Made by a program: the position numbers and the translations under genes
Source: Urechis unicinctus
Taxonomy: Eukaryota; Annelida; Polychaeta; Xenopneusta; Urechidae
DNA: 64,000 nt
Assembly: GCA_034190875.2 (NCBI GenBank)
Contig: CM067353.1
Coordinates: 33,103,675-33,167,674 of the forward strand
Reading direction: 5' to 3'
Shown here: in pieces, positions 30,069 to 64,000 of the stretch
Layout: each line of letters starts with the position of its first letter
Position numbering within the stretch: position 1 is the first letter of the stretch
The notes under the pieces: model-generated
Told to the model about the DNA's origin: nothing
The model's input: the letters and a program-made list of their open reading frames with translations, nothing else
The model's database searches: none

Positions 30069-33000
30069 ATGGCGGATCTTTCGTGTGGCTCATCGTGTTT
30101 GAAATATATCATGTTTGCCGTCAATTTTATCTTCTGGGTAAGTGATTACTAAGCGTTTTGATGTAATTTAACTTGAATCAAGTGTGATGGTTTCATTGAT
30201 CTGGTGAAAACGATAACCATTATAAAATATTCTAGATAAGCCATGCTGAACGTTTCGAATTAACGACACACAAATTGGTTTAAACTCATCCTAAAGAAAA
30301 CATTGCAAGTTTTCATTTTCTACCAAATGGAAAATGTTTGCCTCGTAAATAAAATTAAAACAAATGAACCAGTCGCACAAGGTTGAGTTTATAGATCAAT
30401 CTTATGGAAATGAAACTTCGAGTGGTCTGAATTCCAGCAGGCGCCCAACTGCAACTGTTTAAACATTTAAATAACAAAATCTGCTAGTCAAAGTGGCTCG
30501 AGGAAACGCTGATGGTCATACAACCAAAAGCAACTATCTAAACTGACCGCTGGAAATTACTGATGCAGACGTGATTGCAATGGAAACTGCGGCGGACAAT
30601 GTTAGTATTGAATAAAGGTGATTTAACCTTTCGGGGGTTACAAACCAGCTGCCCTTTATCAGTGTCCTTAGATAAGCAGAATTACCCGTATAAGAAGGAA
30701 TGTGTTTGTTTTGTTGTCAACCTGGTGGCACAGCTGCCATTTACGAATAGCCGTTTTCATTAACATTGGCGACCTTGTGGACTAGCGGCTTAACCTTGTG
30801 GAGGAAGTTAAATTTATTTGTTGTGCTGTTACCTTTCACGGCAAGCTTAACACAAATATGCAGAATTTACAGAAAGCGCGTCTCCTCGACTTAATATGTC
30901 TCTCTAACGAGGGAATTCGAACTTCACATGCTGGAATGCAGTTTAATTGAAGAACAGACACTTGCAATGCAAGGCAAAGATGGTGAATGTATCACCTGTA
31001 ACAGTTTGTGTTCAATTTGACGGATGATTTAGCCAGTTAGATTCATAAACACTCGCCGAGATGATGAATAATTACTAGAAAGTTTTTTTTAAAACATTGA
31101 CTCATCTAGGCTACATCATAGTTGTTACGCGATGGTGGCACGCAACCTTGCCTAATATACATAGATGTAAATGCACTTGATAAATGTAAGTTAGAGTTTC
31201 AGTGTCCGGAGTGTGTGTGTATTGGCGGATGTAAAAGGGGGTTGGGGGTGGTCGGGGTTAATTAATTAATTCAGAGATAGAATATGGGGTGGTGTAGGAA
31301 ATTAACTCAGAGATAAAGTGTGTGGGGGCATTAACCGAACGCCATCCTCCATATTCATGTCTTCCAGATATTAACTAACAACTCAATCAAAGGTCGTAGA
31401 TATCTATTTTGCCTTCAGATCACAGGCGGGGTCATCCTCGGGGTAGGAATATGGCTTGCTGTTGATGATACAGCCCTTGACTTTTTGGACGGAGTCGCTG
31501 ACAATCCAATGGACGACCCGATGTTTGCTGCAGCATTATATACCCTGATAGCCGTGGGAGCGTTCATCTTCTTGCTCGGCTTCCTCGGCTGCTGTGGCGC
31601 TTGTACTCACAACTCCTGTATGATGTGTTTGGTGAGTCGCTGTAGTCTTTGCTGATGTTTCCCCTACATCATCATCATCAACAACTACTACTACTTCTTC
31701 TGCTACTGCTACTATTACTATAATTCAACTGCTACTTCTACTAATTCTTCTAATACCACTTCTTCCCCTGCATACAACAACAACAAAAACAACCACTACT
31801 ATTTCAACTACCACTTCTGCAACTACTACTACTACTACTACTGCTACTACTTTTGCTACTAGCACGTCTACTCGTGGTTCTACTGCAACTACTAGTGCTA
31901 CGGCTAATTCTTCTTCTGTACGAGAACTACTACTACTTATACTGCTATTACCACTACTACTACATCCACTACTTCTACTGTTACTACAACAACTACTGTT
32001 ACTACTAATATTACTACAACTACTGCTACAACCATTGCTACTTCTTTATACTAGAACTAAACTATTCTATTGCTAACCATCGAGGTTATATCAATCCCAC
32101 AATTTTAATCACGATTCTCGTCATTTTCACCTCCCTCACTCGTTATCATCATAGTTGTCATCATCATTATCATCACCAGCATCATTACACTATCCCCACC
32201 ACCACCACTATCACCCCAAACATCATCAGTGTTATCATCACCATCACCACCACCACCACATCCACAACCACCACCACCACCACCACCACCAACAACCACC
32301 ACCACCACCAACACCACCACACCACCACCACCACCACCACCACCACACACCACCACCACCACCACCACCACCACCACCACCACCAACCAACCACACACCA
32401 CCACCACACCACCACCACACCACCACCACCACCACAACCACCACAAACCAACCACCACCACTCACACCACCACACCACCACCAACAACCCCACAACCACC
32501 ACCACCACCACCACCACCACAACCACCACCACCACAACCACCACCACAACCACCACCACCACCACCACCACCACACACCACCACCACACCACCACCAAAC
32601 CACCACCACCACCACCACAACACACCACCACCACCACCACCACAACCACACCACCACCACCACCACCACCACCACCACCACCACCACCACACACCACCAC
32701 CACCACCACACCACCACCACCACCACCACCACCACCACAACCACCACCACCACCACCACACCACCCCACACCACCACCACCACCCACCACCACCACCACC
32801 ACCACCACAACCACCACCACCAACCACCACACCACCACCACAACCACAACCAAAACCACACCACCACCACAACCACCACCACAACCACCACCACCACAAC
32901 CACAACCACCACCACCACCACCACAACCACCACAACCACAACCACCACCACCACCACAACAACCACCACAACCACCACCACCACCACATCATTATTATCA

Positions 33001-34303
33001 TCATTACTATCATCATCATTATCATTATCATCTGACAACCGTTGTCCATTTATCTCTATTACATCGTACTTAACCTCACTTCATTGTCTTGTTTCAGTAC
33101 ACCATCCTCGTCAGCATTGTCCTGGTTGGTGAACTCGTCGGCGGTATTCTTCTGATCGTTTTCTGGGGAGATGTGAGCACTCACCTTCTTGCTTCATTGT
33201 ATACCTGTATTATATTATGTTTTCTAAATACCACGTGACACCATAGTTTATAACAGGGGGACCTAAATGTTACCGATGTAATAAGTAACACCTGGCTATA
33301 ACATACACGACACAGTGTTTTGAGTATCCGTTAGAGACAGGTTTGATTGTACATAATAAATGTATGCGAGAGATCTAACTCTAGGTGGACCTTCTGCTGC
33401 AGATCGACGAACAAATTAGCGAACAAATGCGAGTGTCGCTTACAAACGATTACGGAAGAAATGACAATGAAGGGGGCTACTTAGCAACGACTCTTTCGTG
33501 GGACTCCATGCAACAGGATGTGAGCATTTTTATAACAACATAAAAAAAACCAATTTCATTGACCTAGCGTTGGTCGCTTCATGATGGGAAACAAAAGTGA
33601 GTTAACGCGTATGCATTTCGACTGATTTTATATTTACCCTAATGGTGCATTGAAACTTCTAAGCTTTGAAGCAACGTTTATTATTTATTTTCATATAAGT
33701 AATATCTTGTTCGATAGTTCGACTGTTGCGGGGTTGACAACCATACGAACTACAATAATAGTTTCTGGTGGAACAACATTAAAAAGGAGGACGACTTTGT
33801 GAGTAATAAAGTCACTTATGTCGCCTTAGTTGTGGATATTGGAAAGGCAAAGGTAACAAAGATTGTCGTCTTTGTTGACCTCAAATGTAATTAAGACACA
33901 TTAGACACAGCAAACCATCTGGTAATTGCAAATGATTAGTCACTTTCTACAAGAGCAATTGCTAATCCAAAGGTAACAAAGTAACCTCTCACAACATCAT
34001 CAATAAGTCGAAAGACATTAACATGGCTGCCTATGGAGACATGAGGTAATGAAATCGTTACATGGTCACAATTCGCGCATGCATTTTCAAATATGATTGT
34101 GTTAAATTTATTTGAATATCATTCAGGTGCCGCTATCATGCTGCCAATCATATGATAAAGATAAAGCTAATCAAACATTACCAGAATGCCAAGACGAAGC
34201 AAGGGATGATGAAGAGGATACTAATGAGTTACATACCAAGGTGAGTAAGGCTGAAGGTACTAAAACCCCCAATCACCCATTTATCACACACGCACACACG
34301 CAC

Positions 34304-34402
<99 letters not shown>

Positions 34403-35029
34403 AACATACAGCGCTAAAAACCTTTTAAATCGCACGAAAATACACATACCCGCACGGAGAAACGAGAATACTCATACAAACACTTTTTATCATAACAAGA
34501 ATCGTAAACAATTAATCTGAGCTATCATTATCGTCTGTGGTTTTTGTTAGAAAAGTCCCGAATTACAATTGCCTTCCAGATGTTTCCAAATGAGGCTTGA
34601 AAATACAGAAACGAAACATTGAGTTGTTAGATAATAGTATTTTGTTATTTTCGCCGATTTTTGTAGGGATGCCGCGATGGATTGAATGATTGGTTTGATG
34701 ACAACGCCGTCATCTTTATCGCTGTCATCTTCACATTTATAGGTCTTCAGGTATGTTATTTCTAGAGTATGGTTCACCTCGTGCTATCAGCGTGACGTCG
34801 CTAAAACTTGCTTTTTGTGCGCTGAAGTTATAATTCGTTCCTTTCCCAGGTATTGTGTGTTATCTTGCCACCCCATGCGATAATTTTTTTCATGTCTTTG
34901 TGTGTGCAGATATTTGGCCTGATATTCGCCTGTATTCTACGAAGTTCATTCAACAAAATTGACTCTGACAAAGTGGTTTCCCATTATAGACATTTTCTTA
35001 TCCGAACTAAGTACAGAATTATGCCTTAG
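30069..35029 (+). CDS. Tetraspanin, copy A, complete, 8 exons
   Basis: Exons: 30069-30137, 31419-31631, 33098-33172, 33403-33519, 33718-33798, 34127-34240, 34667-34750, 34910-35029; all phase 0, 290 aa. The start MADLSCGSSCLKYIMF is followed by membrane segments near residues 12-33, 57-80, 95-117 and 234-262. Exon 2 has the GCCG motif after the second segment. The large loop (about 118-233) has CCG at 161-163, PLSCC at 187-191, PEC at 204-206 and GC at 224-225, six cysteines in the canonical tetraspanin pattern, plus NHT, NNS and NQT glycosylation sequons. Tetraspanins organise membrane microdomains with partner receptors (family knowledge). The exact subtype is not assignable by eye. Introns 2 and 6 carry large simple repeats. 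Three related copies lie on the opposite strand downstream. Confidence 0.96.
31660..33033. repeat. Trinucleotide repeat tract (ATC/CTA then CCA) in intron 2 of tetraspanin A
   Basis: ATC and CTA/CTT-type trinucleotides run from 31,660 to about 32,035, followed after a short spacer by ATC and then CCA/CCACAA repeats to about 32,988, ending in ATC/ATT. From 32,232 to 33,033 the plus strand has no G. Poly-His/Pro/Thr frames on plus and poly-Gly/Val/Trp frames on minus are translation of the repeat. Confidence 0.95.
34281..34400. repeat. (CA)n microsatellite in intron 6 of tetraspanin A
   Basis: About 120 bp of CA with a few CG interruptions at the left end. Copies B and C carry related GT/G-rich tracts at the equivalent position. 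Confidence 0.95.
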
Positions 35030-38115: not shown

Positions 38116-38662
38116 TAACCGCGTAACACTGACGATGCTTAAACAATCTGAGAATGTCTTTTCTGTTCTTCGGTCGGTCGGGGATTTTAATTTGGGGTTT
38201 CGGAAATTTTTTAATTGGGGTTGGGGAGGCGTCAAAACTCGTTATGATCGGCCGTTTTCTCCAGCGCTGTGGTCCAAACTAGAATCATCCCATTGGGGGA
38301 GAGACTCTCATGTTTTCGACACCAACAACCGAGTATATATAAGTAGTAGCGTAGTGCGACTTGGCTTTGCTCAGCCCACCACCACAATGGCTATTCAAGC
38401 AGTACTGTATCAGCTGTTTTGGGGGTCACTGTGTTTCCCGATCTATTGTCACCATTGGAAGCTTTTGAGGAACCCTCTAGTTATGAAAGGGGATCTTTGT
38501 GAGTGTGTTTCTTTGTCTGCTCATGTATTAGGAAACAGTCCGCGTCCATTGGTTTTGTGGCTGTTGTTGGATATAGCTGATTATATAAGCTGGTGTAAGG
38601 TGCCTAATTTGTTCACCCGCGAATCCGACTTTCATCATTTATGCCGTGTTTGCCAGATGTGA
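38090..38662 (+). CDS. Unrecognised open reading frame, 190 codons
   Basis: The frame starts in the duplicated segment and ends next to the right 22-bp inverted arm. A TATATAAG box lies at about 38,335, some 50 bp before an internal ATG (MAIQAVLYQLFWGSLCFPIY), so a shorter product of about 92 residues beginning near 38,387 is possible. The sequence is rich in aromatic and hydrophobic residues. No family is recognised. The distal part (from about 38,573) lies in the B/C duplicated block and is not open to the same extent in the C block. Probably not a gene. Confidence 0.2.
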   Translation: MKLYMLLFLNRVTLTMLKQSENVFSVLRSVGDFNLGFRKFFNWGWGGVKTRYDRPFSPALWSKLESSHWGRDSHVFDTNNRVYISSSVVRLGFAQPTTTMAIQAVLYQLFWGSLCFPIYCHHWKLLRNPLVMKGDLCECVSLSAHVLGNSPRPLVLWLLLDIADYISWCKVPNLFTRESDFHHLCRVCQM

Positions 38663-38684
38663 TGTGTTCGCGAATGCAGGATGT
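38663..38684 (+). repeat. Right arm of a 22-bp perfect inverted repeat
   Basis: Exact reverse complement of 37,787-37,808. A near-identical sequence with one substitution (GGGATG for AGGATG) occurs at about 46,341 in block C, so this arm belongs to the older duplicated DNA. Confidence 0.85.
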
Positions 38685-39699
38685 AAATTCATTTTCAACA
38701 TTTATTCCCAATCGATACGCATAAATAGTGGATCATTATTTAAAATCAGGCATTATTTAAAATCATTGATTATGAATCGGAACTCTCGATTGCAATAACT
38801 TCTCAGAACACATTTTTATGATCTGTTAAATATATATTAGTTGATCATAATTTATCAGTTGAAACAAGTAATTACAAACCATACTTCGAGCACAATGATT
38901 CGGCTCATTGAGATAATACCTGGTTAATGATTAATACAGGAATACCATTTCTCTATGTGTTGGTAGTTATATAAAATCCATCACTTCAGTATGACCCGCA
39001 CTCGATAACGATTGCTGGGAAATACATCATGCTTGTCATTCATCAAATAAACAATAATCCTACATTAAGACAAAGCTCAATTCTAAATCATACAATATCA
39101 TAACGGTAATTCTTGAGGAACCGACTGATTATTGTAACGGCTGTACAAAAATCAATGCGTCGTCTTATCAGCAAATCGCTTGTTACTAACACAGCGTCAT
39201 AAACGGTCCGTTTGAGACATTAATAGAATATTTAGATGCAAGCTTATATATCTTATAACATGTTGGCAAAGTCTCAAATAATAATACAAAAATAATTCTA
39301 AGTATTCTGCACAAAGTGGGCTTAAGGAATATCGTTGCAACATTTCACGAAGTCCAAGGATATGTTGCAGCGCGTATTACACCACCTCACCGTCTTTACC
39401 GAATGAACTTCGCAGTACACAAGCGAATATCAAACCGAATAGCTGCACACATAGACATTCAAAGGCTTATTGTCATGATGTGATAATCGTCTTTCAGCGT
39501 AACAATATTTTCCGATAACAATATTTTCATTGAACCAGACTTTGTATTTTAGGATCGGAAAATGACAGCAATACAATGTTGTCAAGTCAATTGAAATAAT
39601 ATATTAACGACCATACGAAATACATTGCCAGCTTAGATCAGTGCATTAAGGTCTGGATCTCATTACTGCAAGGAAAACATTACTTCACGTCCATCCACT

Positions 39700-40200
39700 G
39701 ATAATGCCGGCATTAATAGCCTGCTATTGACGACCAGAAAAAACAATACTTTTCATGGCCGCATGCTTGAAATGCCAGCGTCAAATAATGCATAAATGAC
39801 CACATTCAGTTAACGCAAGATTCAAACTATGCATCGATGACCAAAACCAGGAAAGGCCCGCTTAGCACAAAACAACACTGATCTAATTCAGAGAACGCAA
39901 GCTTAAGACGATGCATTTATGACCGCAGACAGGAAAGGCCAGCATAAAACAATGCATTTATGAAGGCAGTCGGAGAGGCAATACGTGTATGACCACAATC
40001 AGGAAGGGTCAGCTAAAACAATTCCTTTATGACCACAGTCATGAAAGGTCAATTAAATTAATGCATGTATGGTCACAGTCAGCAAAGACCAGCTTAATAC
40101 TATGCATGTATAAACACAGTCAGAGAAAGCGAGTTTAAAACGATGCATTTATGACCACAGTCATGAAAGGCCATCTTAAACCATGCATTTGCAAACTAGT
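39700..40200. repeat. Degenerate ~40-bp minisatellite, block B
   Basis: Units contain CAATGCATTTATGACCACAG and CAGGAAAGGCCAGCTTAAA. About ten diverged units. The same array is at about 47,180-47,760 in block C. Confidence 0.8.
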
Positions 40201-40429
40201 AAAATAATGTAACAACGACCGACAACGATGACTAAATGTAAACCATTCATTAACGACCACATACAAACGACCAGACACGACAAGTCAAATATGATTAATA
40301 ATAATATATTGATAACAAATTATATAAAAAGCATTGAAGCAATGGATTGAAACCACACGTAAATGAAATGATATATATCAACGCATGGATAATGAACTCA
40401 AAAGAATGGGGAAAAAACACATACTGAGA

Positions 40430-40790
40430 GACAGGTAAAACAATGGATTAACAGCCATATACAGAAAACCAGCTTAAACAATTGATTCACAACCATACAA
40501 TGAAAGCCAGCTTAAACAATTGATTCACAACCATACAATGAAAGCCAGCTTAAACAATTGATTCACAACCATACAATGAAAGCCAGCTTAAACAATGGAT
40601 AAACTTCCATACATGGAAAGCCAGCTTAAACAATGGATCAATTACCACACACGGAAAAACAGATTAAGCAATCGATAAACTTCCTTACATGGAAACCCTG
40701 CTTAAAAAATGGGAAACCAACCATCCACAACCATGCATGGAAAGCCAACTCAACACCATGGAATAACAACTATGCATACCAAGTCAGCTT
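40430..40790. repeat. ~38-bp minisatellite downstream of tetraspanin B exon 7
   Basis: Units contain AACAATTGATTCACAACCAT then ACAATGAAAGCCAGCTTA. The first three or four are nearly identical and the rest diverge. The array continues the intron after exon 7, where copy A has exon 8 within about 160 bp. The mate is at about 48,500-48,790 in block C. Confidence 0.85.
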
Positions 40791-40864
40791 AAAATAATAT
40801 ATCTATGGCAACATACTATAATCGCACCCTACACAAGGTAAACCATGGTCCAGAGATTACATAC

Positions 40865-43800
40865 CTCAAGTCCAAGAAAAGACGATTTGAAAGCGGTAAA
40901 GATGACGGCTTTATCATCAAACCAATCATTCAATCCATCGCGGCATCCCTACAAAAATTGGCGAAAATAACAAAATATTATAATCTAACAACACAGTGTT
41001 TCGTTTTTGTATTTTCCAGTCTCATTTGGAAACATCTGGAAGGGAATTGTAATTCGGGACTTTTCTAACTTTTTACATATGTCAAGACAAAAAAACCACA
41101 GAAGATAATGAAAGCTCAGATGATTTATTTACGATTCTTGTTATGACAAAAGTGTTTGTGTGCGTATTCTTTTTCGTCCGTGCGGGTATGTGCATTTTTG
41201 TGCGATTGAAAAGGTTTTTGGCTATGTGTCAGCGTGTGTGTGTGTGTGTGCGGGGTGGGGAGGGGGGGGGGGGCGGTGGTCGGGGGGGGGGGGGTGGTGA
41301 ATGTGTGCGCAGTTGTGAGCGCGCGTGTATGTGCGTGTTAAATTGGTGATTTGGTGTATTAGTGCCTTTCAGCTTTACTCACCTTGGTATGTAACTCGAC
41401 TGTATCCTTTTCATTAACCCTAGTTTCCGCTTGGCATTCTGGTAATGTTTGATTAGCTTCATCTTTGTCATACGATTTGCAACACGATAGCGGCACCTGA
41501 ATGAAATTCAAAGCCAATTTAACACAATCATATTTGAATATACATACGAGAATTGTGACCATGTAACGATTTCATTACCTCATGTCTCCATAGGCAGCCA
41601 TGTTAATGTCTTTCGACTTATTGACGATGTTGCGAGAGGTTATTTTGTTTCCTTTGGATAAGCAATAGCTCTTGTAGAAAGTGACTAATTATTTGCAATT
41701 ACCAGATGGTTTGCTGTGTCTAATGTATCTTAAATACATTTGAATCGCTTGAGGTCAACAAAGACGACAATCTTCGTTACCTATGTCTTTCCAATATCCA
41801 CAACCAAGGCGACATAAGTGACTTTATTACTCACATAGTCGTTCTCTTTTTTCGTGCTGTTCCACCAGAAACTATTCTCGTAGCTCGTATGGTTGTCAAC
41901 CCCGCAACAGTCGAACTATCGAACAAGATATTACTTATATGAAAAAAGATAATGAACGTTGCTTCAAAGCCTACGAGTTTCAGTGCAACATTATGGTAAA
42001 TATGAAATTAGTCGAAATGTATACGCCATTAATTCACTTTTGTTTCCCATTATGAAACGACCAACGCTAGGTCAATGAAATTTGTTGTTTTATGTTGATA
42101 TGAAAATGCTCACATCCTGTTGAATGGAGTCCCACGAAAGAGTCGTTGCGTTCTTGTTTCCGTAATCGTTTGTAAGCGACGTTCGCATTTGCTGATTCAT
42201 TTGTTTGTTGATCTGCAGCAGAAGGACCACCTCTTGCATAAATTTGTTATGTGCAAACAAACCTGTCTCTAACGGATACTCAAAACACTGTGTCGTGTAT
42301 GTTATAGCCAGGTATTTACTTATTACTTCGGTAACATTAACGTCCCTCTGATATAAACTAAAAAGTTGAAAAGGTCAGCTATTCTGTATAAATGTTGCTG
42401 CACAAGTCTATGGTGTCACATGGTATTTAGAAAACATTATACAGGTATACAATGAAGCAAGTAGGTGAGTACTCACATCCCTCCAGGTAACGATGAGAAG
42501 GATAAATGGGACGAGTTCAGCGATTATGACAATGCCGAGGCTGACGAGGATGTACTGTTGCAAGACAATGGAGTGAGGTTAACACTTTCTGATAATGATG
42601 ATGATGATGATGATGATGATGATTATGATACTCGTGCAGCTGTTGATGATAACGACGTTGACGATGATTATGATGATGATGATGATGATGATGAGTTGTA
42701 GAAATTATGGTAGTAGCAATTGGTGCAGTAATAGTAGTAGGAGTAGTAGTAGTGGTAGTAGTATAAGTAGTAATAATAGAAGCAGCAATTGTTCTAGTAC
42801 TTGTCATTGTAGTAGAAGCATAGCAGTAAAAGTAGTTATAGAAGAAGCAGTTATAGTAGTAGTAGTTTAAGTTAGAGTAATAGTAGTACTAGTAGTGGTG
42901 GAAGAAGTAGCTGTAGTAGATGTAGGAGTAGCATCAGCAAAGACTTTAGCGACTCACGGCAGTCAAAATACGGGAGCTTCGAGTGGTAATTCCCCAGATG
43001 CCTAGTAAGCCGAGCAAAAATATAACCGACCCCACGGCTATCAGGGTATATATTACTGCAGCAAACATCTGGTTGTCCATTAGACTGTCAGCGATTCCGT
43101 CCAAAAAGTCCAAGTCTTTATCATCAACAGCAAGCCATATTCCTATCCCGAGAATGACCCCTCCAGTTATCTGAAAGCAAAATGAATATTAACCGACTCA
43201 AAATCAATTAATACTCTTTGGATTGAGTAGTCAATTATGATTTGGGTGACTTGAATATGTGTGTTCGTTTTGTAGGGTGAGGGGTGGTGGTGTGTCAGCA
43301 TTGAAGTAAACACAACATTTGTGTTGGGATGGGTGCGGTGGGGTATTGTTTGGTTCTGGCGGCGGTGATACAAGCAGGCCCAGACTACAACCTCTTCACG
43401 CACCCACATGTGCCATTCATCTTATTAGCACGAACTAATGGCACTTACGTAAAAGGAAGGACATTGGGGGCATAGGGGGTAGCTTGCCAGGAGAGACGAA
43501 GACTGTACGAGAGGCAATAAACTAAAATTATCGAGATTATACAAGTCTTCGAGTTTTGCACAACGAACAACTTATAAGAAACTACAAAATCACTCCTATA
43601 ACAACTGGTGGAGAATCCGGGTATTTGTAGTAAACTGCTACAGGTACGGGTAACGACTTCGGTACTAACGCTTGGAAGATGCTAATTACCCCACTTAGCA
43701 TTAACGTCAAATGAGAACCTGGTCGGGTCGAGAATTCAACCCAAGGCACGACACGCCTTCTAACTGGCAGAAAATATCGCTGAGTGGCGTTGATGACATA

Positions 43801-50602: not shown

Positions 50603-50660
50603 TGATAACAGTGATGATGATACTCGTGCAACTGTTGATGATAACGACGGCGACGACGAC

Positions 50661-50734
<74 letters not shown>

Positions 50735-53700
50735 GTAGAAGTTGTGGTAGTTGCAAATGGTGCAGTTATATTTGTAGAAGTAGTAGTAGTGGTGGTGGTA
50801 GTGGGAGAAGTAGTAGTAGTGGTATTAGTAGTAGTATAAGTAGTAAAAATAGAAGCAGTAGTGGTTGTAGAAGTAGTAGTAGTAGTCATTGTAGTAGAAG
50901 CATAGCAGTAAAAGAAGTTACAGAGGAAGTAGTTATAGAAGTAGTAGTTAAAGTAAGAGTAGTAATGATAGTAGTGATAGTAGTGATGGAAGTATTAATT
51001 GTTGTAGATGTAGGGGAAACATCAGCTAAGATTAGAGCGACTCACCAAACACATCATACAGGAGTTGTGAGTACAGGCGCCACAGCAGCCGAGGAAGCCG
51101 AGCAAGAAGATGAACGCTCCCACGGCTATCAGGGTATATATTGCTGCAGCAAACATTGGGTCTTCCATTGGACTGTCAGCGATTCCGTCCAAAAAGTCCA
51201 AGGCTGTATCATCAACAGCAAGCCATATTCCTATCCCGAGAATGACCCCTCCCGTTATCTGAAAGCAAAATGAATATTAACCGACTCAAAATCAATTAGT
51301 ACTCCATGGATTAAGTAGTCAATTATGATTTGGGTGACATGAATATGTGTGTTCTTTTTGGGGAGAGGGGTGGGTGTGTCAGCAAACAGAACATTTGAAT
51401 TGAGATGGGTGCGGTGGGGGTATCGGTTGGTCCTGGCGGCGGGTGGTGGGGGGCATATATACTGAATGCAAAATAAACATTCGTCAAGATAAATTTGAAT
51501 TGAATTGTTGGATCGATTTTTATGTGGCAGACAAAAAATAATCTTCCGCGATATGAATTTGTGCGTTTCTATGCATCAGAAAAAGGGAATAGTTTATAAC
51601 AAGTAACAAGTTTACAGTTAGTATATTGATGCGATTATTGGTAGCAATGAATATCATGTTCAACGTCACCTCTAGCTGCCATAACAATCACCATCACCCA
51701 AACAATGTCCAAGGCTATAGCCACCATTCACTGACACTATACATCGAATCTTGACACACTGATAACTGAATGTTTCTGAGCTACATTTGAACTGAAGCGC
51801 GCCCGTCGTTCGGGCGGTAACTTAGGTAGACAGATTGAGGGTGCAGCTGTAAGATAATCGGGTTTGATTGGGCAGAGGGGGCGTGGGGGAGGGGGTTGTG
51901 AAAATAATAGGTGGACGAATTGTTGATATAGGGATGGGAAGGGCATGCATCATTAAGTATTGGCATATGTGGTTATATAGTTGGAAATAACTGTGATACA
52001 ATCAGGCCCAGACCACAACCTCTTCACGCGCCCACATGTGTGTAATTTATCTTATGAAAACAGTATCCTTGACTAGAGATCGTGTCGCCTGGTACTGTCT
52101 GCATTACTGTGTAATCAGTATCTGTCCATTCATCTTATTAGCACGAACTAATGGCACTTATCTCACCCATTGGAGGTAACTGTGTTGGTCGCGTTTTTTT
52201 TTAACAAATGCATGTTAACACATGCACACAATGACACACGTGTGTGTGTAAGTATGTGTGTGTGCGTGTGCTAAATTGGTTAGTTTGTTTATCATATATA
52301 TATATACATATAGTTGTGTAAATACTTGTATTTAATGCCACAAAACGATGTCATTTACAAACTCTGATAACCGAGTAACTCCCTCGGGGCCACACCACCC
52401 CATCCCCCACACCCCAACCCGATAGACATACTTCCCAGGTTGTAACTTGCTGTAAGTGACAAACGAATTTACAACCAAGGAAATGTTGATGTTCAAACTC
52501 GACATTGCCTCTCTACTAAGGTCGCACAGAATATCAAGGCCAATGTACTTTCATTATTGACCTCGATTATACCTGCGAGGAGATATTTAGATTGTTGCCT
52601 CCAATATCTCACCTGAATGCTGATGATTAGCAATGAAACGGTATATTCACCTTATATATGTGCCAGTGTAAATATAGCTACAAGAACGTCATTGTTTCAT
52701 GTTTTGACGTATGCTGTCCGAAAAAATCAGTTTTTGATGGTGATTAGATCTTTTGAGTAGTGTTTGAAGAGTTACGGAGTAGCGGGTGGGTAAGTGTGAC
52801 AGATTACGTCATCAACAACTTGAGGTCCGTTCAAGTGCGGATGGTTAGAATTCGCGGTTCACTTTGCCACTACCAGAGTGGCTAGAAGGGTTCTTGTGCA
52901 CTTCATTCCTTCTCGGAGTTGAGAGCAGACATTGGTTTATTGGGTAGCATCCTGGATATCGATTATAACATAAGCTGATATAAAATTACCCTTAAGAGTA
53001 TTCAGGATGCCATCATTTTCATCAGAAAATGTAACACGGATATCCCGTATATAAACATAGTTTACCAGAAACCTTCATGAGTATTATTAACTTGTTTCGC
53101 TTTTATGATGCTCATGCTCAGGCCAAATAAACACGTTCGGTTCTCGTCAGGGAATTGATGAAAAATTTGAGCAAGATGTTATTTGTTGTTTTAACAAATT
53201 AACTATATATCCCTGCTTTTATAACTACAAATTATTATCGTATGTGTACCACATGAACTCTCATGTTATTCACACAGTTTCTGGGATATTGTTGCTTAAG
53301 AACCTCATTACACACATTACTCGAATACCGAATGTATCTAAAATGTGCCATATCACATGTAACAAATACACTTCGGCATATGTAAAAACAAAACAAATAT
53401 AAACGACATGACTTTGCTTATGAATTCAAATATTGCCTAAATGCCTCGCTACACTTGTCAACTAATTTTTCTGAAACATACTCATCAAATAATGAATACA
53501 TAGTCTCATTTACACTGCACAAACATAATCAGGATCTCATTTTCCTGTTTTCAAAAATGAAATTTGTGGTGGCGCGGAAGAAAAAAAGTGGTGTGCGTGC
53601 AGACGAAAACCGACATTGTTGATTTATTTGGCCTTATGGTTTTCTACAGTCACATAACTTTGTAAGACGTAGGCGAGGTTGATGGTGGTAGTGTATAGAT

Positions 53701-54265
53701 ATGACAGAAATTTATCTTTTCTGTTTTCTGATCCATGGGGATATGATAATGGAGATAACTTTTAAAACAGCAGTTAATGGTTGAAATGCTTCCTCATAGG
53801 ATAAAGCCATTTCCTCCTGGACGTCTTTTCTTGGTAATAAATCCTGCTTTGAATATATTCGGAATTCATCAGATGTTTGCTAAGATATTTGCAAAAGCAG
53901 CAACTTTAGTCTAATGCGTGGCTCCTTTAAGAAAGGGCATGCATTGCTGCATTTCCACAAAACTGGAATGATTTCTTACCAACATTATCTTTTGAAAAGC
54001 AAACTACTAATTCCGATCGAGATTTGGGGAAGAAGATCCACAATGACAAAATACATTGACTCATTCATCTTGCATAATAAACAAATTTACTGCTACCATT
54101 ATAAACGCTTACATCATTCCTAATTCCAATTCCTTCATTCGTTGTAATCGGTTACCTGGCGAACATTCCGAAAATGAGTACATAAATACCACTTACCCAG
54201 AAGATGAAATTGACGAGAAACATTATATATTTCAAGCAAGAAGCGCCACACGAAAGATCCGCCAT
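48883..54265 (-). CDS. Tetraspanin, copy C, exons 1-7, exon 8 not found
   Basis: Exons, complement, in transcript order: 54197-54265 (ATG at 54265), 51046-51258, 50425-50499, 50056-50172, 49777-49857, 49336-49446, 48883-48966; 250 codons, all phase 0, each with a good donor and acceptor. It begins MADLSCGASCLKYIMF, keeps LGFLGCCGACTHNSC, FDCCGVDNHTNY, VPLSCC, NQTLPVC and GCREGLNDWFDDNAVI, and is close to copy A throughout; exon 6 is one codon shorter. Exon 7 ends in a good GTATGT donor, yet no counterpart of copy A's last exon is visible down to 46,251; the intron there has become minisatellite DNA. Probably functional if a distant last exon exists or if a readthrough end is used. Confidence 0.88.
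50560..51020. repeat. GAT and GTA trinucleotide tracts in intron 2 of tetraspanin C
   Basis: GAT at 50,563-50,602 and 50,660-50,733 with other short runs, then AGT/GTA-type repeats to about 51,010. Same order and place as in copies A and B. Confidence 0.92.
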
Positions 54266-56687
54266 CTTGAATGAATTTGTAGAGACACTCGGTCTGTTCT
54301 ATCCCTGAATTTAGTATCTACAAACTCGCGTCTTTGACTGTTAATTTCCGACTGGATACTCTTGCTTCCGGATGGTGCTTATGTAAACGTATACCAGAGC
54401 TGCCTTATGAGGATTAATAACGTCACGATAACGTAATTGTCTTCACACCTGGTGCTGATATGTGTCACATGGTATGGTGTGTACCTTCTGATTCACTTTT
54501 TACCTCGTGATAATGATAAATACCGCACTCAACCTTTGTTCCCCCACTGCAATAATTCACCTTGTTATCAATGTGGGCGTTTGCAAACGTCAATGGTGAT
54601 AATATGGTGCACGACGACCAAGGGCATTATTCGGTTTTGTTTTGTTTTTAGATTGAGGAATAGTGCAGGAGATACGGAGCGTTCTACAAGGACGCAGCTA
54701 TCATAACGCGATAGTTGGTTGGCTTAGGTAGCAAATAAATATTACTCTCTATGCAACATATATGTGACGATAACAAAAGAAACTTCACCAATATGAGTGA
54801 GGATCAAAGAGGAACTGAAATATTTATGGAAGTTCGGTCAAACTGGTTCCATGTGTTTTCAGGAACGTAATCCTAAAGCAATCTTTTTCTCATCATTTGA
54901 CAAATAGATTTGGCCAAAAAGATGATCATTTGGGAAAATGCAATCCGATTTGTGTTACAAGTATCTAGTGCAAACAACTTGTACGAACTGGAATTGTATT
55001 TTCAAGTACTTTTGTGACGTACATATATACGCTTCTTGTAGCTAGTGAGTCATAGTTTACTTGTTGACCTATGAACGTTGCTTCTTTGATAGATTGGACT
55101 GAGTGCTGAGTTACCCCGACACCTAGTGTCGTGAAGTTGTTATGCCTGATGGGCGAGCTCCCTAAGTGGATAACGAGAACACTTTGTCTGATAATTTGTC
55201 CAATTAACCTGGACATGTTTTTGTTTTTCGTCTTTGTATGAAAATCTATTAACAATATATAATGTGTCAATAACGGTTTGTTTTATTCGAATTATGGACT
55301 ATTTATCTCGACCGTACGCCACATTGCAAGATCAAAGTACAATGATATTCGGTAATTTATTCAACAAACGCTGATGATTGCGATATGGAAGGACGGTGTA
55401 TGTTAAAGATGTAGCTTAATATCAACGTTCGATGTGTTGAAGATAATAATAGAAAGCAGGAAGTTGTTACGTGATTAATGGCAAATTTTATCTCGGCACG
55501 AGCCACTATGTATCATGCTCTTTGTATGAAATATGTCTTATCAAAAATCAGGAAAATTTTGCCGTGAAAAAGCTTCACTGACAGATTCAATACTAGAGTA
55601 ATATTCCAAATGATCCAGATATAGAAGTGATGACATAAATAATTTTTCCATTTCACTGTCCCTACATAGATTAATATGATGTATGTATTGAAATATGTAA
55701 TGGAATAAATATTGATGACAATGTAAATGGTTATTAAAAACATTAGGTACTGATAATCTGAACAACGCATTGAACGGAGCCTATGATGCACTTCTGTAAG
55801 TTGGTGAGTTTGGCAAGTGCTGTCTCTGTATTTCGATCCTGTACCTACCGATTTGCACCATGTGTATTGATTCTCCATGCAGCGAGGGGAATCCCTTAAA
55901 CTCCATGATAGAATTGACTGCCAAAAACGTGTTCCAAACGATAAAACAAATACAGTTCATTGATATATATTATACATCAATGGGAATAATTGACCTTTCA
56001 TGTTTTTTGGGAGTATGCAAGCAAAACAACGTGAATACTTGTCCCACTACACATTACACTATTTTATGAGGGAGTCAAGGAACAAGTCACAGGTGGTTGG
56101 GTATATGAAAATATAATAATAGTTTATAAACATAAAATTGGAGTATGCAAATTTAACAATTGGTGCTGTTGAGATAAACAGCATGAAATGTTATTGATGA
56201 CATAATGTAGGAATTTAACAATGATAGTGTGATAAAGAAGAACAATTTTGACTACTGTGTTATTAAGTATTATCCCATGTACAACATGCAGGAGTATATC
56301 AAGACAGAATAATTAATACAATAAATGGGATATAAGAAATGTTGATAAGGTAGATATAATTGAGATACTTATGAGCTGTGAAACATAAAACAATGTACAA
56401 CATGCAGGAGTAAAATAATGACCTAAATAAATAACCCGCTGTGTTAACAAATATGCTAAGATAAATGGCAATACAACTAGCCCTGGTTGGATGGTGATAT
56501 ACTAATAAACCGTCCTGTGTATTTTCCGCGCGAATGGGTAATGTGTTTTGAAAGAAACGGGGGATTAAGTATCTAGAAAACAACATATATCAAGAGCCTG
56601 TGAAAAGATATGTAGTCTCCGGGTGTTGTCACACAGGAGCTGCATTGCAACGCATATATTTCATTTTCTGGCGTTGAAAGTTACGAT

Positions 56688-57060
56688 TCAAACTAGCTTA
56701 GCCCTGCGTGCTGGCAGAATTATTTTTCTTTCACGGCAGTTAAAGTCAATTTTATCAAGGAAGCTATCAACATCGTCCTGCTTACAGTTAATCCATTGAA
56801 AGAAAAGCGGCGACAAAGCTTTTGAGGTGAATATTTCGATGTATGCGCGCTTTTGATACTGTTGGATCGCCGACATGTTTAATCTTGACTCCATCACGAT
56901 TGTAACAAAGGCAGACGCCGAGTTGAACTGTCATCTGTTTGAAATTGTCAGGACTGCGTCTGCGCAAAGCTACCGCCGCCTCGTTGTAAAGATAAACATG
57001 TCGACATGTGCTCATCGATGATGCCACCACGACTGCAATCGTAATGGTAGTCCATGTCAA
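56688..57060 (-). CDS. Unrecognised overlapping open frames
   Basis: Two minus-strand frames overlap: one reads MTWTTITIAVVVASSMS and CLCYNRDGVK; the other starts at an ATG near 56,894 with MESRLNMSAIQQYQKRAYIE and IFTSKALSPLFFQWINCKQD. The second looks more protein-like. No family is recognised. It could be an exon of an unknown gene or chance. Confidence 0.18.
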
Positions 57061-58027
57061 CTGAATACATTGTGATCATAGGTGCAAATTGTTCATTACC
57101 ATAAAAAACATGCGTTGAAACCAAACCCTCCAGGTTTTATACGTTTGGGGAATCTAATTTGAATTGTGGATTTAAGACTGCTTTGGCTATGAATATAATG
57201 ACGATGTACTAAATGGAACTTGTAACATTGATCTGATAAAACAACAGTGATAAGAAATATAGCAACACCTTCAACGACCGTTTCTATTAAAACACCAAAG
57301 CAATTCCAAGTGAAACCAAGTATTTTACATGCAATATATCAACAGGACTGTTTACCGGGCTAGTAGGCAACGCACGTGGCGCTTCGTCACCAAGGCGTGG
57401 CTGTAAATCGTGATGTCGTGTTTCGATAACACGACATTAAGCCGTCAAGCGTCCTGATTGTACTTGGGAAACATTGTAATACTCTGTAAATATTTTTGCA
57501 TTGTTAGTGATAGTGTAACTAGAATCTGGCTTCAATGGGTCGCTTAGTTCGTAAATTAAGCGGTTGTTCGAATATAACCTGATAACAACACGTAGACAGA
57601 TAGCCGTGCACGACGTCTTATTGACGTCGTGCGATGGTCGAAACCGGACACGCGGTGAACGATATATAAGTCCCGATTTTGCACGATAATTACACAAATG
57701 CTCATATGAAGAATAATTTTTCATATATATGAATGTTTATTAACAAGCTGAGTTAGTCCACGTGTTAGATTTCGTCATAGAAGATTTGATCCGGCCAGAC
57801 AAATTTTGAAAAATTCATGTTTATTTTGAATGACAAGATCGGTTGCTGCGCGCACGCAAAGACAAGGTTCTTCGCAAGCGAACTTTGGCTTTCCAAATTT
57901 TATTATTCAAGTTTATGTGTCATTTTGTCAATGATTATCTTTTGGCAATACCTGCCTTAGATGGTGGATATGTATTCAACGATATCGCATTGACAATTGA
58001 AAAAAGATAACACTTATAGATTACCGC

Positions 58028-58245
58028 AGCCTGGAGGGGGCACTTGGCCTTGTCCTGAGTAGAGGTGTGCCCCGGGATCCCGAAAACCCGTACACGTCGT
58101 ACAAATGGCAAAGCATACCCCGTCCTACAAATACGAGGCCCAACAAAACCCGTCGTACAAATCGAGAGGACGAACAAAACATTCCCCGGCACATGTATAC
58201 TACCTCAATATACATAAGTGCCCCCCCCCCCCACCGGGACCTGCA
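58028..58245. mobile_element. Poly-C/G-ended non-autonomous element, copy 2
   Basis: Left end CTGGAGGGGGCACTTGGCC; right end AAGTGCCCC, a C run and ACCGGGACC. Interior units with ATACCCCGTCCTACAAAT and AAAACCCGTCGTACAAATC are the reverse complement of those in 44,799-45,062, so the two copies lie in opposite orientation. Confidence 0.78.
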
Positions 58246-58632
58246 GCCACATGGTGAGTGAAACTGAAACTGCGTTATGTGACGTCATATATCCAGAACC
58301 GGGGTTGCCGTGAACGAGGTTTTTTTCTAGTGAAAACGTGACGCGCGTTTTAGGAATGACATGAGTCGGGGTGCGTTAAATCATCCCTCGCACACTTTGC
58401 CATGTACCAACGTCCTACTGATACATAATTCTATCTGCAACAACTTATATGTTACCGTGACTCAATGATGATTATATATTTTGCATTCGCATTAACACTG
58501 AACGCAATTCTCTCTGTGTAATTTTTATGAACTGGGAGACTGTCGATAAAATGCCGATAAAATATATCGAACGTCTTTGCCACAAGTCTGGTCAAAGCTA
58601 GTCAAGGTCCCCCAGCCTGATGGCTGCGGGCG

Positions 58633-59247
58633 CTGTTTACATGTTACTGATATTCAATAGTCTCGCCTTCAGGTCTGGGCGAGCTTAATATCTTGAATTG
58701 GACAGGCATCCCAGATTTGGGATGCTCCAATCACAAGCCGTGTCTCTCGGTCACTCTCTGATACTTTTAAGTTGTTGTCTCTCATTGGTCAGTTCTACAA
58801 GTTCCGAAGAACTTGTCCAACCGGTGGAGTGATTTTTATGAGCCGGGCACACATCCTATAACACTCCGATTTGTTGTTTCACGCTGAGTCACACAGTCGG
58901 CGAGAGAAGCAGTAAACATACTATCGTGCAGCTAAGCATTAAAGCATTTGTTGTGGTGCCAATTTGAACTTTTGAGACGCCTCATAATTCCAGAAGACAT
59001 TCAATGTGTTCTCATTGGACGCAGACCACTACAATGTCCATGACGTCACAAAGAACCGAGGGTGCGTATCACAAGCCAGACACGCGCAATTAAGGTCAAT
59101 CCGGGTCACAACCTTTGCGTTGATTGGTCACGAAGATTAACGAACGTGTCTAATGAATATTCGGACGCGCCAATTTAAGACCTTATCTTTTCGTAGACTC
59201 TAGGGCGAGAAGCGTAGCGGAACCCCTGGAGTCTGGGACGCAGACTA
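58633..59247 (+). repeat. Dispersed repeat, copy 2 (mate at 242-826)
   Basis: Same ordered blocks as copy 1 (GATATTCAATAGT, GCCGTGTCTCTCGG, CCTTTGCGTTGATTGGTCA) and the same end (CTGGAGTCTGGGACGCAGAC). It carries an extra internal segment near 59,000. Confidence 0.7.
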
Positions 59248-61719
59248 GGTCAAAGCAATGTTGAGTGTCAAAAGTACATTGTGCCACAACCTTGTCCATT
59301 ATCTTAAAGTTCACCACGTTGTCATGACCTTCGCGTCACCTCTCAGCCCCCACCCCCTCTCCTCATACATGCCCTTTACCTTATAGCCGAGCCCATCTTC
59401 TTATCAGGCCACTGCATGTCCCATGAGAATTGGATGGCCTGCCTGGGTCGTTGAGGGAATCTGTTTGACCTTTAAAAATGAGTTCTATCCTCCGAGCTCA
59501 ACACTTCTCTCTCAATCTTTTGGGCAAAGCTCCTTCTTAAATTCTAAAGTCATAGTAATCGAATAAAGTGTAAGTCTCTTCTAAATCCAACCCCTGAAGT
59601 TCGTGTTCCTTCATCAACAATTTCAAGCGCGTGTCGCGGATCACCACACCACAAATCGCGATACGACAGCAAGGACTTTGCCAAAGTTCACGGTGATTAA
59701 CGATCATCCCCGACTCGGCGTTAGGATCGTTCCGGGGGATAGTTCGGTTCCCGATGTTAGGTTTCCGAGTGACTAGCGACTAGATCTATGTAACATATGC
59801 TATAGCGAAAAATAACTTGCTTGTCAGTGTTCGGAAATTTGTCACCCGGACCTGACATCGGGATCCCACCGCCTTTGTTCATTCATAACGGATCCAAGGA
59901 GTTTGCCGGGCCATACCTTCTCCAGCTGACGGACCGCTATGACTTCTTCCTACTTCTGTTATTGATCATAACGTATAAGACAATCTATCAAACCCCATAC
60001 AGCCACATGGATTTGTATTATAAAGTCGACAAGTGGAAATCGTGAATTCAAACTTAAAGAACGATTTGGCCACCAGCTTCCTATAAATCATCCCTCGTGT
60101 CATTCAAGTTTCGTGCCCATTTTAATAGGTTCTAAACGCGTGTATGAGCGCTCAATATATCCACCACTTGCCTACCTCATGATACGAACCACTGTTGAAC
60201 CAACAATCAGGATCTATGTTACCAATGTAGGTTGTGCGAACCAGTCGGAATTGCATCTAAAATCAGATACAATCAGAGATGGAAAATTCTTTGATACATA
60301 TATTAATATATATATATATAACCCAACCCGATAGACATACTTCCCAGGTTGTAACTTGCTGTAAGTGACAAACGAATTTACAACCAAGGAAACGTTGATG
60401 TTCAAACTCGACATTGCCTCTCTACTAAGTACAGTATATCAAGGCCAATGTACTCTCATTATTGACCTCGATTATACCTGCGAGGAGATTGGATTGTTGC
60501 CTCCAATATCTCACCTGAATGCTGATGATTAGCAATGAAACGGTATATTCACCTTATATATGTGCCAGTGTAAATATAGCTACAATAATAACGTCATTGT
60601 TTCATGTTTTGACGTATGCTGTCCGAACAAATCAGTTTTTGATGGTGATTAGAACTTTTGAGTGGTGTTTGAAGAGATACGGAGTAGCGGGTGGGGAAGT
60701 GTGACAGATTACGTCATCAACAACTTGAGGTTCGTTCAAGTGCGTATGGTTAGAATTCGCGGTTCACTTTGCCCCTACCAGAGTGGCTAGAAGGGTTTTG
60801 GTACACTTCATTCCTTCTCGGAGTTGAGAGCAGACATTGGTTTATTGGGTAGCATCCTGGATATCGATTATAACTTAAGATGATATAAAATTACCCTTAA
60901 GAGTATTCAGGATGCCATCATTTTCATCAGAAAATGTAACACGGATATTCTGTATATAAACATAGTTTACCAGAAACCTTCATGAGTATTATTATCTTGT
61001 TTTACTTTTATGATGCTCATACTAAGGCCAAATAAACACGTTCAGTTCTCGTCAGGGAATTGATGAAAAATTTTAGCATATATCTTAACTATATATCCCT
61101 CCCATTATAAATACAAATGATAACCGGATGTGTACCACATGAACTCTCATGTTATTCACACAGTTTCTGGGCTATTGATGCTTATGAAAGTCAAACTTCA
61201 TTACACACTTTACTCGAATACCACATGTATCTAATATATGTAACAAACAAACTTCAGCATATGTAAAAACAAAACAAACCACCCCATCTCCATACCCACC
61301 ACCTCCCTCAACCACCTCGTGTGAGAGGTGCATGACATACAAATATTGACCATTGCTCTTTTCTTGGTAATAAATCCTGCTATGAATTTATTCGGAATTC
61401 GTCAGATGTTTGTTGAGATATTTGCAAAAACAGTAACTTTAGTCTAATGTGTGGCTCCTGCATACATTGCTGCATTTCCACAAAAATGGAATGATTTCTA
61501 ACCAACCTTATCTTTTGAAAAGCAAACTACTAATTCCGATCGAGATTTGGTGAAGAAGATCCACAAAGACAAAATACATTGACTCATTCATCTTGCACAA
61601 TAAACAAATTTACTGCTACCATTATAAACGCTTACATCATTCCTAATTCCAATTCCTTCATTCGTTGTAATCGGTTACCTGGTGAACATTCCGAAAATGA
61701 GTACATACATACCACTTAC

Positions 61720-61788
61720 CCAGAAGATGAAATTGACGAAAAACATTATATATTTCAAGCAAGAAGCGCCACACGAAAGATCCGCCAT
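61720..61788 (-). CDS. Orphan tetraspanin first exon, copy D
   Basis: An intact exon 1 (ATG at 61788, MADLSCGASCLKYIMF then FVNFIFW) with a good GTAAGTGG donor, nearly identical to exon 1 of copy C. No exon 2-8 lies between here and 54,266. It is either a broken partial copy or a second first exon and promoter that could splice into copy C exon 2 at 51,258. Confidence 0.85.
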
Positions 61789-64000
61789 CTTGAATGAATT
61801 TGTAGAAACACTCGGTCTGTTCTATCCCTGAATTTTGTATCTACAAACTCGCGTCTTTGACTGTTAACTTCCGATTGAATACTGTTGCTTCCGGGCGGTG
61901 CTTATGTTAACCTATATCAGAGCTGCCTAATGAGGATTAATAACGTCACGACAACGTAATTGTCTTCACACCTGGTGTGGACTTGTATCACATGGTACGT
62001 CGTACCTTCTGATTCACTTTTTACCTCGTGATAATGATAAATACGCACTCAACCTTTGTTCCCCCACTCCAATGATTAACCGTGTTATCATTGTGGGCGT
62101 TCGCAAACGTCAATGGTGAAAAATAATGTGCACGACGACCAAGGGCATTATTCGTTTTTATGGTTTTTTAAAATTGATAAATAGTGTTCTAAAAGGACGC
62201 AACTATCATACCACGATGGTTGGTTGGCTTAGTAAGCAAATAAATATTACTCTCTATGCAACATATATGTGACGATAACAAAAGAAACTTCACCAATATG
62301 AGTGAGGGTTAAACAGGAACTGAAATGTTTATGGAAGTTCGGTCAAACTGGTTCCATGTGTTTTCAGGAACGTAATCCTAAATCTCATCCTTTGCCAAAT
62401 AGAGTTTGCCAAAAAGGTGATCATTTGGGGAAATGCAATCCGATTTGTGTTACAAGTATCTAGTAGAAACAACTTGTACTTTTGTGACGTTCATTTATAC
62501 GCGTCTTGTAGCGAGTGAGTCATGGTTTACTTGTTGACCTATGAACGTTGCTTATTTGATAGAGTGTCATGGAAGAAGTGAGTTACCCCGACACCTAGTG
62601 TCGTGAAGTTGTTATGATGGATGGGCGAGCTCCCTAAGTGGATAACGCTTTGTCTGATAATTTGTCCCATTAACCTGGACTTGTTTTTTGTTTTTGCATG
62701 AAAATCTAAAAACAGTACATAATGTGTCAATAACGGTTTGTTTTATTCGAAGAAGCCTTTTAATAATGGAAGTACAACGATATTCGGTAATTTATTCAAC
62801 AAACGCTGATGATTGCGATATGGAACGCCGGTGTGTGTTGAAGATGTAGCTTAATATTAACGTTCGATGTGTTGCAGATAATAATTGACAACAGGAAGAT
62901 GTAACGTGATTAATAGCATTTTTTATCTCGGCACGAGCCACTTTGTATCATGCTCAAAGTACAAGGGTGTATAAAATATGTCTTATCAAAAATCAGGAAC
63001 ATTTTGCCGTGAAAAAACTTCACTACTTGAGTAATATTCGAAATGATGCAGATAAGTGATGACATCAATAATGTTTCCATTTCATATTTCATCACAAACA
63101 GGTTAGTTATTTCAAAACTTAAACGTTTTAATTTTATCAATACCTTCTGTCCCTATACGGATTAATAAGATGTATGTACATAAAGCGAATTGAAATATGC
63201 AATGGAATAAATGTTGATGACAATTTAAATTATTAAGAACATTTAGTACTGATAATCGGAACACCGTATTGAACGGAGCCTATGATGTACTTCTGTAAGT
63301 TGGTGAGTTTGGCAAGTGCTGTCTCTGTGTTTCGATCCTGTACCTACTGATTTGTACCATGTGCATTGATTCTCCATGCAGCCAGGGGAATCCCTTAAGC
63401 TGCATGATAAAACTGGCGACCAAAAACGCGTTCCAACCGATAAAACAAATACAGTTCGTGGATATATATCATACATCAATGGGAATAATTGACCTTTCGT
63501 GTTTTTGGTGAGTATGCAAGCAAAACAATGTGAATACTTGTCCGACGACAGAATTATTTATTTTATGAGGGAGTCAAGGAAAAAGTCACAGGTGGTTTAT
63601 TGACGTGAAATTGGAGTATACAAATTTAACAATTGGTGCTGTTGAGATAAACAGCATGAAATGTTATTGATGACATAATGTAGGAATTTAACAATGATAG
63701 TGTGATAAAGAAGAACAATTTTGATTAGACTTCTGTGTTATTAAGTATTATCCCATGTACAACATGCAGGAGTATATAAAGACAGAATAATTAATACAAC
63801 ACATGGGATATACGAAATGTTGATAAGGTAGATATATTGAGATACTTATGAGCTGTGAAATATAAAACAATGGACAACATGCAGGAGTAAAATAATGACC
63901 TAAATAAATAACCCGCTATGTAAACAATTATACTAAGATAATTGGCAATACAACTAGCCCTGGTTGGATGGTGATATACTAATATACCGTCCTGTGTATT
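61789..64000. other. Upstream flank of orphan exon D
   Basis: Duplicate of 54,266-56,580. A minus frame at 63,243-63,479 (TVFVLSVGTRFWSPVLSCSL then CMENQCTWYKSVG) followed by a GTAGGT donor is open here, but its mate in block C near 55,850-55,960 has an in-frame stop. No gene is recognised. Confidence 0.4.

What the first reader, a model, noticed from the sequence alone, without database searches (positions are those of the whole stretch)
30069..64000. Tetraspanin cluster: one complete gene tail to tail with three tandem relatives at successive stages of decay
Copy A (plus) is complete. B, C and D (minus) sit in collinear blocks. C keeps all motifs but has no visible exon 8, B has lost the GCCG motif and damaged its last membrane segment, and D is exon 1 only. 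Equal intron phases and matching intron repeats prove shared descent. This is a compact natural series of gene birth and erosion.
Basis: partly seen in the sequence, partly recalled or inferred. Interest (0 to 1): 0.75.

Follow-up and report, generated by a model that had tools for sequence, protein, structure and literature searches.

The report
Tetraspanin gene cluster with patchwork copy
Four neighbouring copies of an animal membrane-protein gene arose by local duplication; two look healthy, one is intact but has one strongly rewritten patch, and one was born as a first-exon fragment, so this is not a simple series of decaying genes.

Summary
The cluster is real: A (30069-35029, plus) lies tail to tail with B, C and D (minus), and the B and C blocks are collinear. 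The decay series is not supported. C is complete: exon 8 is at 47031-47096 and its 7 introns are GT-AG, phase 0. B is also complete and open. D never had exons 2-8: it is the exon-1 end of a head-to-tail duplication of 52413-60320 into 60322-69094, broken inside C's intron 1. Branches other than B have omega 0.21; B has 1.16-1.53, not distinguishable from 1. Yet B's exons differ more than its introns (86/732 v 62/1179, p 4e-7). The excess sits in one patch across the exon 2/exon 3 join (44/147 sites), where even silent divergence is far higher (B-branch dS 0.38-0.43 v 0.02-0.05 elsewhere). B keeps 6 of 6 large-loop cysteines and 2 of 8 others. Best reading: duplication plus exchange between copies, with B's membrane patch left out. 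B is more likely a divergent gene than a pseudogene, but only RNA can settle that. Ordinary in kind, moderately interesting in detail.

The parts
30069..35029 (+). Copy A, tetraspanin gene, 8 exons (30069-30137, 31419-31631, 33098-33172, 33403-33519, 33718-33798, 34127-34240, 34667-34750, 34910-35029), 290 aa
   Evidence: Open frame, GT-AG phase-0 introns; PF00335 192.1 bits
39377..44713 (-). Copy B, tetraspanin gene, 8 exons (44645-44713, 42958-43170, 42477-42554, 42114-42212, 41835-41915, 41383-41496, 40865-40948, 39377-39442), 267 aa
   Evidence: Open frame; PF00335 164.3 bits
42477..43029 (-). Divergent patch of B: last 24 codons of exon 2 (42958-43029) and exon 3 (42477-42554), with intron 2 between them
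   Evidence: 44 of 147 sites B-unique; dS 0.38-0.43 on the B branch
47031..54265 (-). Copy C, tetraspanin gene, 8 exons (54197-54265, 51046-51258, 50425-50499, 50056-50172, 49777-49857, 49336-49446, 48883-48966, 47031-47096), 271 aa
   Evidence: Open frame with exon 8 present; PF00335 191 bits
61720..61788 (-). Copy D, exon 1 only, with ATG and GT donor
52413..60320 (.). First unit of the head-to-tail duplication (C exon 1, part of C intron 1, 5' flank)
60322..64000 (.). Second unit (D), cut by the window end; continues to 69094 in window numbering
38571..44780 (.). B block, collinear with C block 46247-54352
46247..54352 (.). C block, collinear with B block

Best explanation
This is a small tetraspanin cluster made by DNA-level duplication, since introns are kept, and reworked by exchange between copies. 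A and C are ordinary complete genes (open frames shown; function inferred). D is the exon-1 end of a tandem duplication of C's 5' region, so it was born incomplete (shown). B is a complete gene whose TM2 end, cytosolic loop and TM3 differ more from A and C than these differ there from a paralogue on contig C17, while its introns, its large-loop exons and its last exon stay close to its neighbours (shown). I infer that exchange homogenised most of B while selection on the protein kept this patch distinct. The result would be a tetraspanin without most of its juxtamembrane cysteines, expected to be little palmitoylated and to join tetraspanin microdomains weakly, while keeping the extracellular fold (inferred).
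For: 21 of 21 introns of A, B, C are GT-AG and phase 0. ML codon model written here: omega of the other branches (A, C, outgroup, internal) 0.21, B 1.16-1.53 over three topologies, difference p 1e-8 to 2e-8. B-unique sites: exons 86/732, adjoining introns 62/1179, p 4e-7. Pairwise: B-C exons 14.3% v introns 9.7%; A-B 17.4 v 13.1; A-C 10.5 v 15.3. Patch 44/147 v immediate flanks 15/123, p 6e-4; v flanks plus first part of exon 2, p 4e-8. Patch B-branch dS 0.38-0.43 v 0.02-0.05 in the rest. Amino-acid changes where the other two copies agree with the outgroup: B 29, A 5, C 2. Cysteines: B keeps 6 of 6 in the large loop and 2 of 8 elsewhere, Fisher p 0.0097. Mosaic: A-B intron 5 differs 6.1% against B-C 10.9%, but B-C intron 7 7.2% where A hardly aligns. 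D is a tandem unit with a junction at 60320/60322. Parallel: conversion in introns but not in Ig-domain exons of CEACAM32 (PMC7042247, passages).
Against: B's omega is not different from 1 (p 0.29-0.61), so purifying selection on B is not shown; in the loop exons 4-6 it is above 1 only under one of three topologies (p 0.039, 0.13, 0.13). C's own replacement-to-silent ratio is not low either (17 to 6 changes, 0.74; A 0.27). Outside the patch B's exons do not significantly exceed introns (42/585 v 62/1179, p 0.11). A's silent sites also exceed introns 3-6 (0.139 v 0.050), so exon/intron contrasts are not unique to B, and with introns 3-6 alone A's exons (43 of 729) are not slower than introns (53 of 1059). 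The topology of the patch is unresolved (lnL -491.2 v -492.3). B has only 67 bp of shared 5' flank with a high-copy repeat beside it. TM4 of B is weaker. Counting only cysteines shared with the outgroup, loss is 4 of 6 v 0 of 6, p 0.06, two of those six not being readable in the outgroup. Intron 2 is largely simple repeat, so the flanks beside the patch are short. Exchange was inferred from mosaic identity, not by a formal test.
Confidence: 0.55

Rival explanations
1. B is a young pseudogene: relaxed since duplication, not yet hit by a stop, and the patch is a chance cluster of multi-base mutations.
For: Omega near 1; GCCG lost and TM4 weakened; only 67 bp of shared 5' flank; exons outside the patch not significantly above introns; in simulations 28% of copies with 33 neutral changes stay free of stops.
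Against: No stop, frameshift or lost splice site; with 86 changes only 4% stay free of stops; exons above introns, p 4e-7; 6 of 6 large-loop cysteines kept.
Confidence: 0.35
2. D is a working alternative first exon and promoter of C, splicing in phase to C exon 2.
For: Same strand upstream of C, ATG and GT donor intact, all introns phase 0.
Against: No sign of selection: 1 of 69 differences is matched by 23% of 2628 windows of 53824-57997. No transcript data.
Confidence: 0.25
3. The D unit, or the B/C pair, is an assembly artefact such as an unpurged haplotype.
For: C and D units are 97-100% alike near their outer ends and abut exactly.
Against: Much of the middle of the C/D unit is near 90% and B-C introns differ 9.7%, more than usual allelic difference (recalled); B and C differ throughout.
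Confidence: 0.06
4. B's patch was imported from another tetraspanin by conversion, possibly from a spliced template.
For: Exon-limited, contiguous in mRNA, raised silent divergence; 11 of 24 replaced codons differ at more than one base against 1 of 28 elsewhere.
Against: No donor found in the same genome (only best candidates are scored and some stretches are masked). Part of the excess is shared by exons 1 and 7 (8/69 and 9/84).
Confidence: 0.15

Closest known systems
Tetraspanin family (Pfam PF00335), six-cysteine large-loop type
   Same: Pfam hit over cut-off for A, B, C; CCG...PxSCC...C...GC pattern as in PMC2965184 Table 1 (passage). Nearest solved chains by sequence, searched with C alone, are TSPAN7, CD81 and CD9
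   Different: B lacks most juxtamembrane cysteines and GCCG after TM2
Tetraspanin clusters of fly and amphioxus (PMC2965184, passages)
   Same: Clustered, species-specific duplicates with rapid divergence; the paper reports positive selection after duplication in vertebrates (abstract)
   Different: Here only four copies, one of them an exon-1 fragment and one a mosaic
CEACAM32 escape from concerted evolution (PMC7042247, passages)
   Same: Introns alike, one exon block strongly different from the paralogues
   Different: Membrane/cytosolic patch rather than an Ig domain; one genome here, so selection is inferred and no conversion test was run

Membership tests
Tetraspanin | Match to PF00335 above the curated cut-off | tested here: met
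   A 192.1, C 191, B 164.3 bits; cut-off 32.1
Tetraspanin | CCG and six-cysteine pattern in the large extracellular loop | tested here: met
   6 of 6 cysteines in A, B, C; pattern from PMC2965184 (passage)
Tetraspanin | Four hydrophobic segments | tested here: met
   Kyte-Doolittle peaks in A, B, C; TM4 of B weaker
Tetraspanin | Juxtamembrane cysteines that carry palmitate (usual, not strictly defining; PMC4165315 passages) | tested here: inconclusive
   A and C carry 8 cysteines outside the large loop, B keeps 2 of 8; palmitoylation itself was not testable
Pseudogene (B) | Stop, frameshift or lost splice site | tested here: not met
   None found in B
Pseudogene (B) | Neutral evolution of exons | tested here: inconclusive
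   Omega near 1, but exon divergence above introns, mostly in one patch
Pseudogene (C) | Missing exon 8 or broken frame | tested here: not met
   Exon 8 at 47031-47096, frame open
Alternative first exon (D) | Transcription and splicing to C exon 2 | not testable with these tools
   Needs RNA

The most novel reading that the evidence does not exclude
B's TM2-loop-TM3 patch was written in from a spliced-RNA-derived template of a diverged tetraspanin (exon-limited, contiguous in mRNA, skipping intron 2), creating in one step a tetraspanin stripped of most juxtamembrane cysteines, which selection then protected from re-homogenisation by its neighbours.
Probability: 0.1. Interest if true: 0.65.

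Novelty: new member of a known kind. Interest (0 to 1): 0.4.

Why it matters
It corrects a decay story: an apparent gene-erosion series is two intact genes, one mosaic intact gene and one partial duplicate. If B is expressed, it is a natural cysteine-poor tetraspanin beside normal paralogues in one cluster. That would allow a direct test of what juxtamembrane cysteines do and of how selection can shield one exon block from exchange between copies.

Tried and rejected
Tested whether D exon 1 is under selection because it differs from C at only 1 of 69 sites: rejected, 23% of 2628 windows of 53824-57997 are as similar.

Tested whether B's exon 2, or its patch, has a better match elsewhere in the genome: apart from B itself the best matches to B exon 2 are C and A, and the joined patch matched only B. 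Only the best candidates are scored and some stretches are masked, so this is not proof of absence.

Looked for more copies in the 60 kb beyond the window: no exon match at E 0.05 or better, 7500 of 60000 bases reading N.

Tried to place the organism: Pfam egg lysin and mollusc haemocyanin gave nothing, but the tool said that nothing rang in its 14 controls either, so this is no evidence of absence; a third query (PF16915) did not complete.

A genome search for other copies of the D unit did not complete; I did not ask again.

Structure prediction was not used: the tool asks for a protein that the DNA gives letter for letter, and these proteins are spliced.

Literature: the listings (9 of 9, 2 of 2 and 10 of 23 papers listed) showed no title or abstract start describing such a cluster. 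The listings (exons and introns under selection; promoter duplication) were not followed up. Seen: PMC4165315 (passages), PMC8830517 (passages), PMC2965184 (abstract, outline, passages), PMC7042247 (passages, one from its abstract).

Full report
What is there. Self-comparison shows A inverted against B and C, a direct pair of blocks (38571-44780 and 46247-54352) and a second direct pair (52413 onward and 60322 onward). A, B and C each have eight exons, with 21 of 21 introns GT-AG and phase 0 (B's exon 3 starts at the CAG acceptor, 42554). They encode 290, 267 and 271 residues and match Pfam Tetraspanin at 192.1, 164.3 and 191 bits, cut-off 32.1. C also has a sub-threshold CD20 hit (18.7 bits, cut-off 27.9).

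C has exon 8, at 47031-47096, and B has the corresponding exon at 39377-39442; the 21 encoded residues are identical. B has no stop and no frameshift. Against A, the length differences in exons 1-7 are +3 in B exon 3, -18 in B exon 4 and -3 in C exon 6. B did lose GCCG after TM2, and its TM4 is less hydrophobic.

D. The unit 52413-60320 is repeated head to tail as 60322-69094; about 5 kb of the second unit lies beyond the window. One breakpoint is inside C's intron 1, so D got exon 1 and the 5' flank and never had exons 2-8. D exon 1 differs from C exon 1 at 1 of 69 sites, but 23% of 2628 overlapping 69-nt windows of 53824-57997 are as similar, so this shows no selection. D could serve C as a second first exon, in phase; untested.

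Selection. Pairwise NG86 omega on exons 1-7 is 0.40 (A-C), 0.46 (A-B) and 0.83 (B-C); YN00 gives 0.57, 0.60 and 1.13. The outgroup is a paralogue on contig C17 with eight matching exons; its exon 5 frame is broken, and 7 codons of it were dropped. A branch codon model written here gives 0.21 for the other branches taken together and 1.16-1.53 for B over three topologies. B differs from the others (p 1e-8 to 2e-8) but not from 1 (p 0.29-0.61). In exons 4-6 alone B's estimate is 3.3-20 (p against 1: 0.039, 0.13, 0.13); in exons 1-3, 7 and 8 it is 1.02-1.25. Counting changes unique to each copy gives A 0.27, B 0.95 and C 0.74, C on only 17 replacement and 6 silent changes. So constraint is clear for A and for the pooled background, weaker for C on its own, and not shown for B.

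Exons against introns. Sites where only B differs are 86 of 732 in exons 1-7 and 62 of 1179 in adjoining introns (p 4e-7). C is 23 and 63 (p 0.02) and A 44 and 166 (p 2e-8), the other way, but A's flanks include stretches that barely align. With introns 3-6 aligned on their own, unique sites are A 53, B 43 and C 79 of 1059; A's exons are then not slower than its introns, and A's silent sites are also raised (0.139 v 0.050). Pairwise over all alignable introns, B-C exons differ at 14.3% and introns at 9.7% (p 3e-4), A-B 17.4% and 13.1% (p 0.006), A-C 10.5% and 15.3% (p 0.003). Neutral decay would make B's exons equal to its introns. The excess is not uniform: 44 of 147 sites in the last 24 codons of exon 2 and in exon 3, against 42 of 585 elsewhere, which is not significantly above introns (p 0.11). 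The patch against its immediate flanks is 44/147 v 15/123, p 6e-4; the flank count was made without gaps and is inflated by one indel.

Nature of the patch. On a slightly wider patch of 52 alignment columns, B's branch has dS 0.38-0.43, against 0.02-0.05 in the rest, and omega 0.84-0.89, against 1.7-5.0 in the rest (neither different from 1). There B matches A at 25 of 51 residues, while A matches the outgroup at 33 of 51 and C at 49 of 51. Among codons where A and C agree in residue, 11 of 24 replaced ones in the patch differ at more than one base, against 1 of 28 elsewhere. Raised silent divergence means that recent selection on the protein is not enough: the patch is older than its surroundings, imported, or hit by clustered mutation. 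The three topologies do not differ usefully on the patch (lnL -491.2, -492.3, -492.3). Of 87 B-only nucleotide differences the outgroup agrees with A and C at 50, with B at 17 and with neither at 20. No donor was found in the genome.

Mosaic history. A and B are closest in introns 3 and 5 (7.5% and 6.1%), yet B and C are closer in intron 6 (8.7% v 16.3%) and in introns 1 and 7 and downstream (7.2-7.6%), where A hardly aligns. I read this as exchange among the copies with B's patch left out; no formal conversion test was run. CEACAM32 in ruminants is described in similar terms (PMC7042247, passages).

Consequence for the protein. B keeps all six large-loop cysteines and two of eight others; all five at the end of TM2 and in the loop are gone, and Cys6 is Trp (p 0.0097, or 0.06 if only outgroup-shared ones outside the loop are counted). 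Which side of the membrane they face is inferred from family topology. Juxtamembrane cysteines of tetraspanins carry palmitate and support tetraspanin-tetraspanin contacts (PMC4165315, passages). That B is poorly palmitoylated is inference.

Is B a gene? In neutral simulations that count stops only, 4% of copies with 86 changes stay free of stops, and 28% with 33 changes, the number that the intron rate predicts. B's shared 5' flank is only 67 bp and a high-copy repeat lies just beyond. I give 0.55 to a divergent working gene of the kind described and 0.35 to relaxed decay.

Wider setting. Exon 2 of A finds 28 matches in the genome at E 1 or less: 16 on contig C17, 3 on C12 (all in this cluster) and 9 on other contigs. 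The nearest outside the cluster is on C17 (69%). The cluster may have come from C17 by DNA duplication; inference.

Noticed in passing
37479-37786 and 37808-38115: Perfect 308-bp direct repeat (period 329) between the A and B genes, 100% identical, so very recent or an assembly effect.
   Followed up: no
36285-36668 (minus): Single ORF with a weak reverse-transcriptase match (RVT_1, E 4.7e-6, below Pfam's cut-off), probably an old retroelement fragment.
   Followed up: no
44800-45060: High-copy repeat (2006 first-look candidates, 40 scored) right beside the 5' end of the B block.
   Followed up: partly
39988-40712 and 47410-48788: Minisatellites with units of about 38-41 bp in intron 7 of both B and C, with different copy numbers.
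   Followed up: no
19019-19900 (minus): Long open frames made of one tandem repeat in three overlapping frames; looks like a minisatellite rather than a gene.
   Followed up: no
L016 and L015 joined (C17:14641000-14660999): The nearest paralogue outside the cluster has eight matching exons but a broken reading frame in exon 5: decay or assembly error.
   Followed up: no
676-826 and 59100-59247: Dispersed repeat, two copies 79% alike, near both ends of the window.
   Followed up: no
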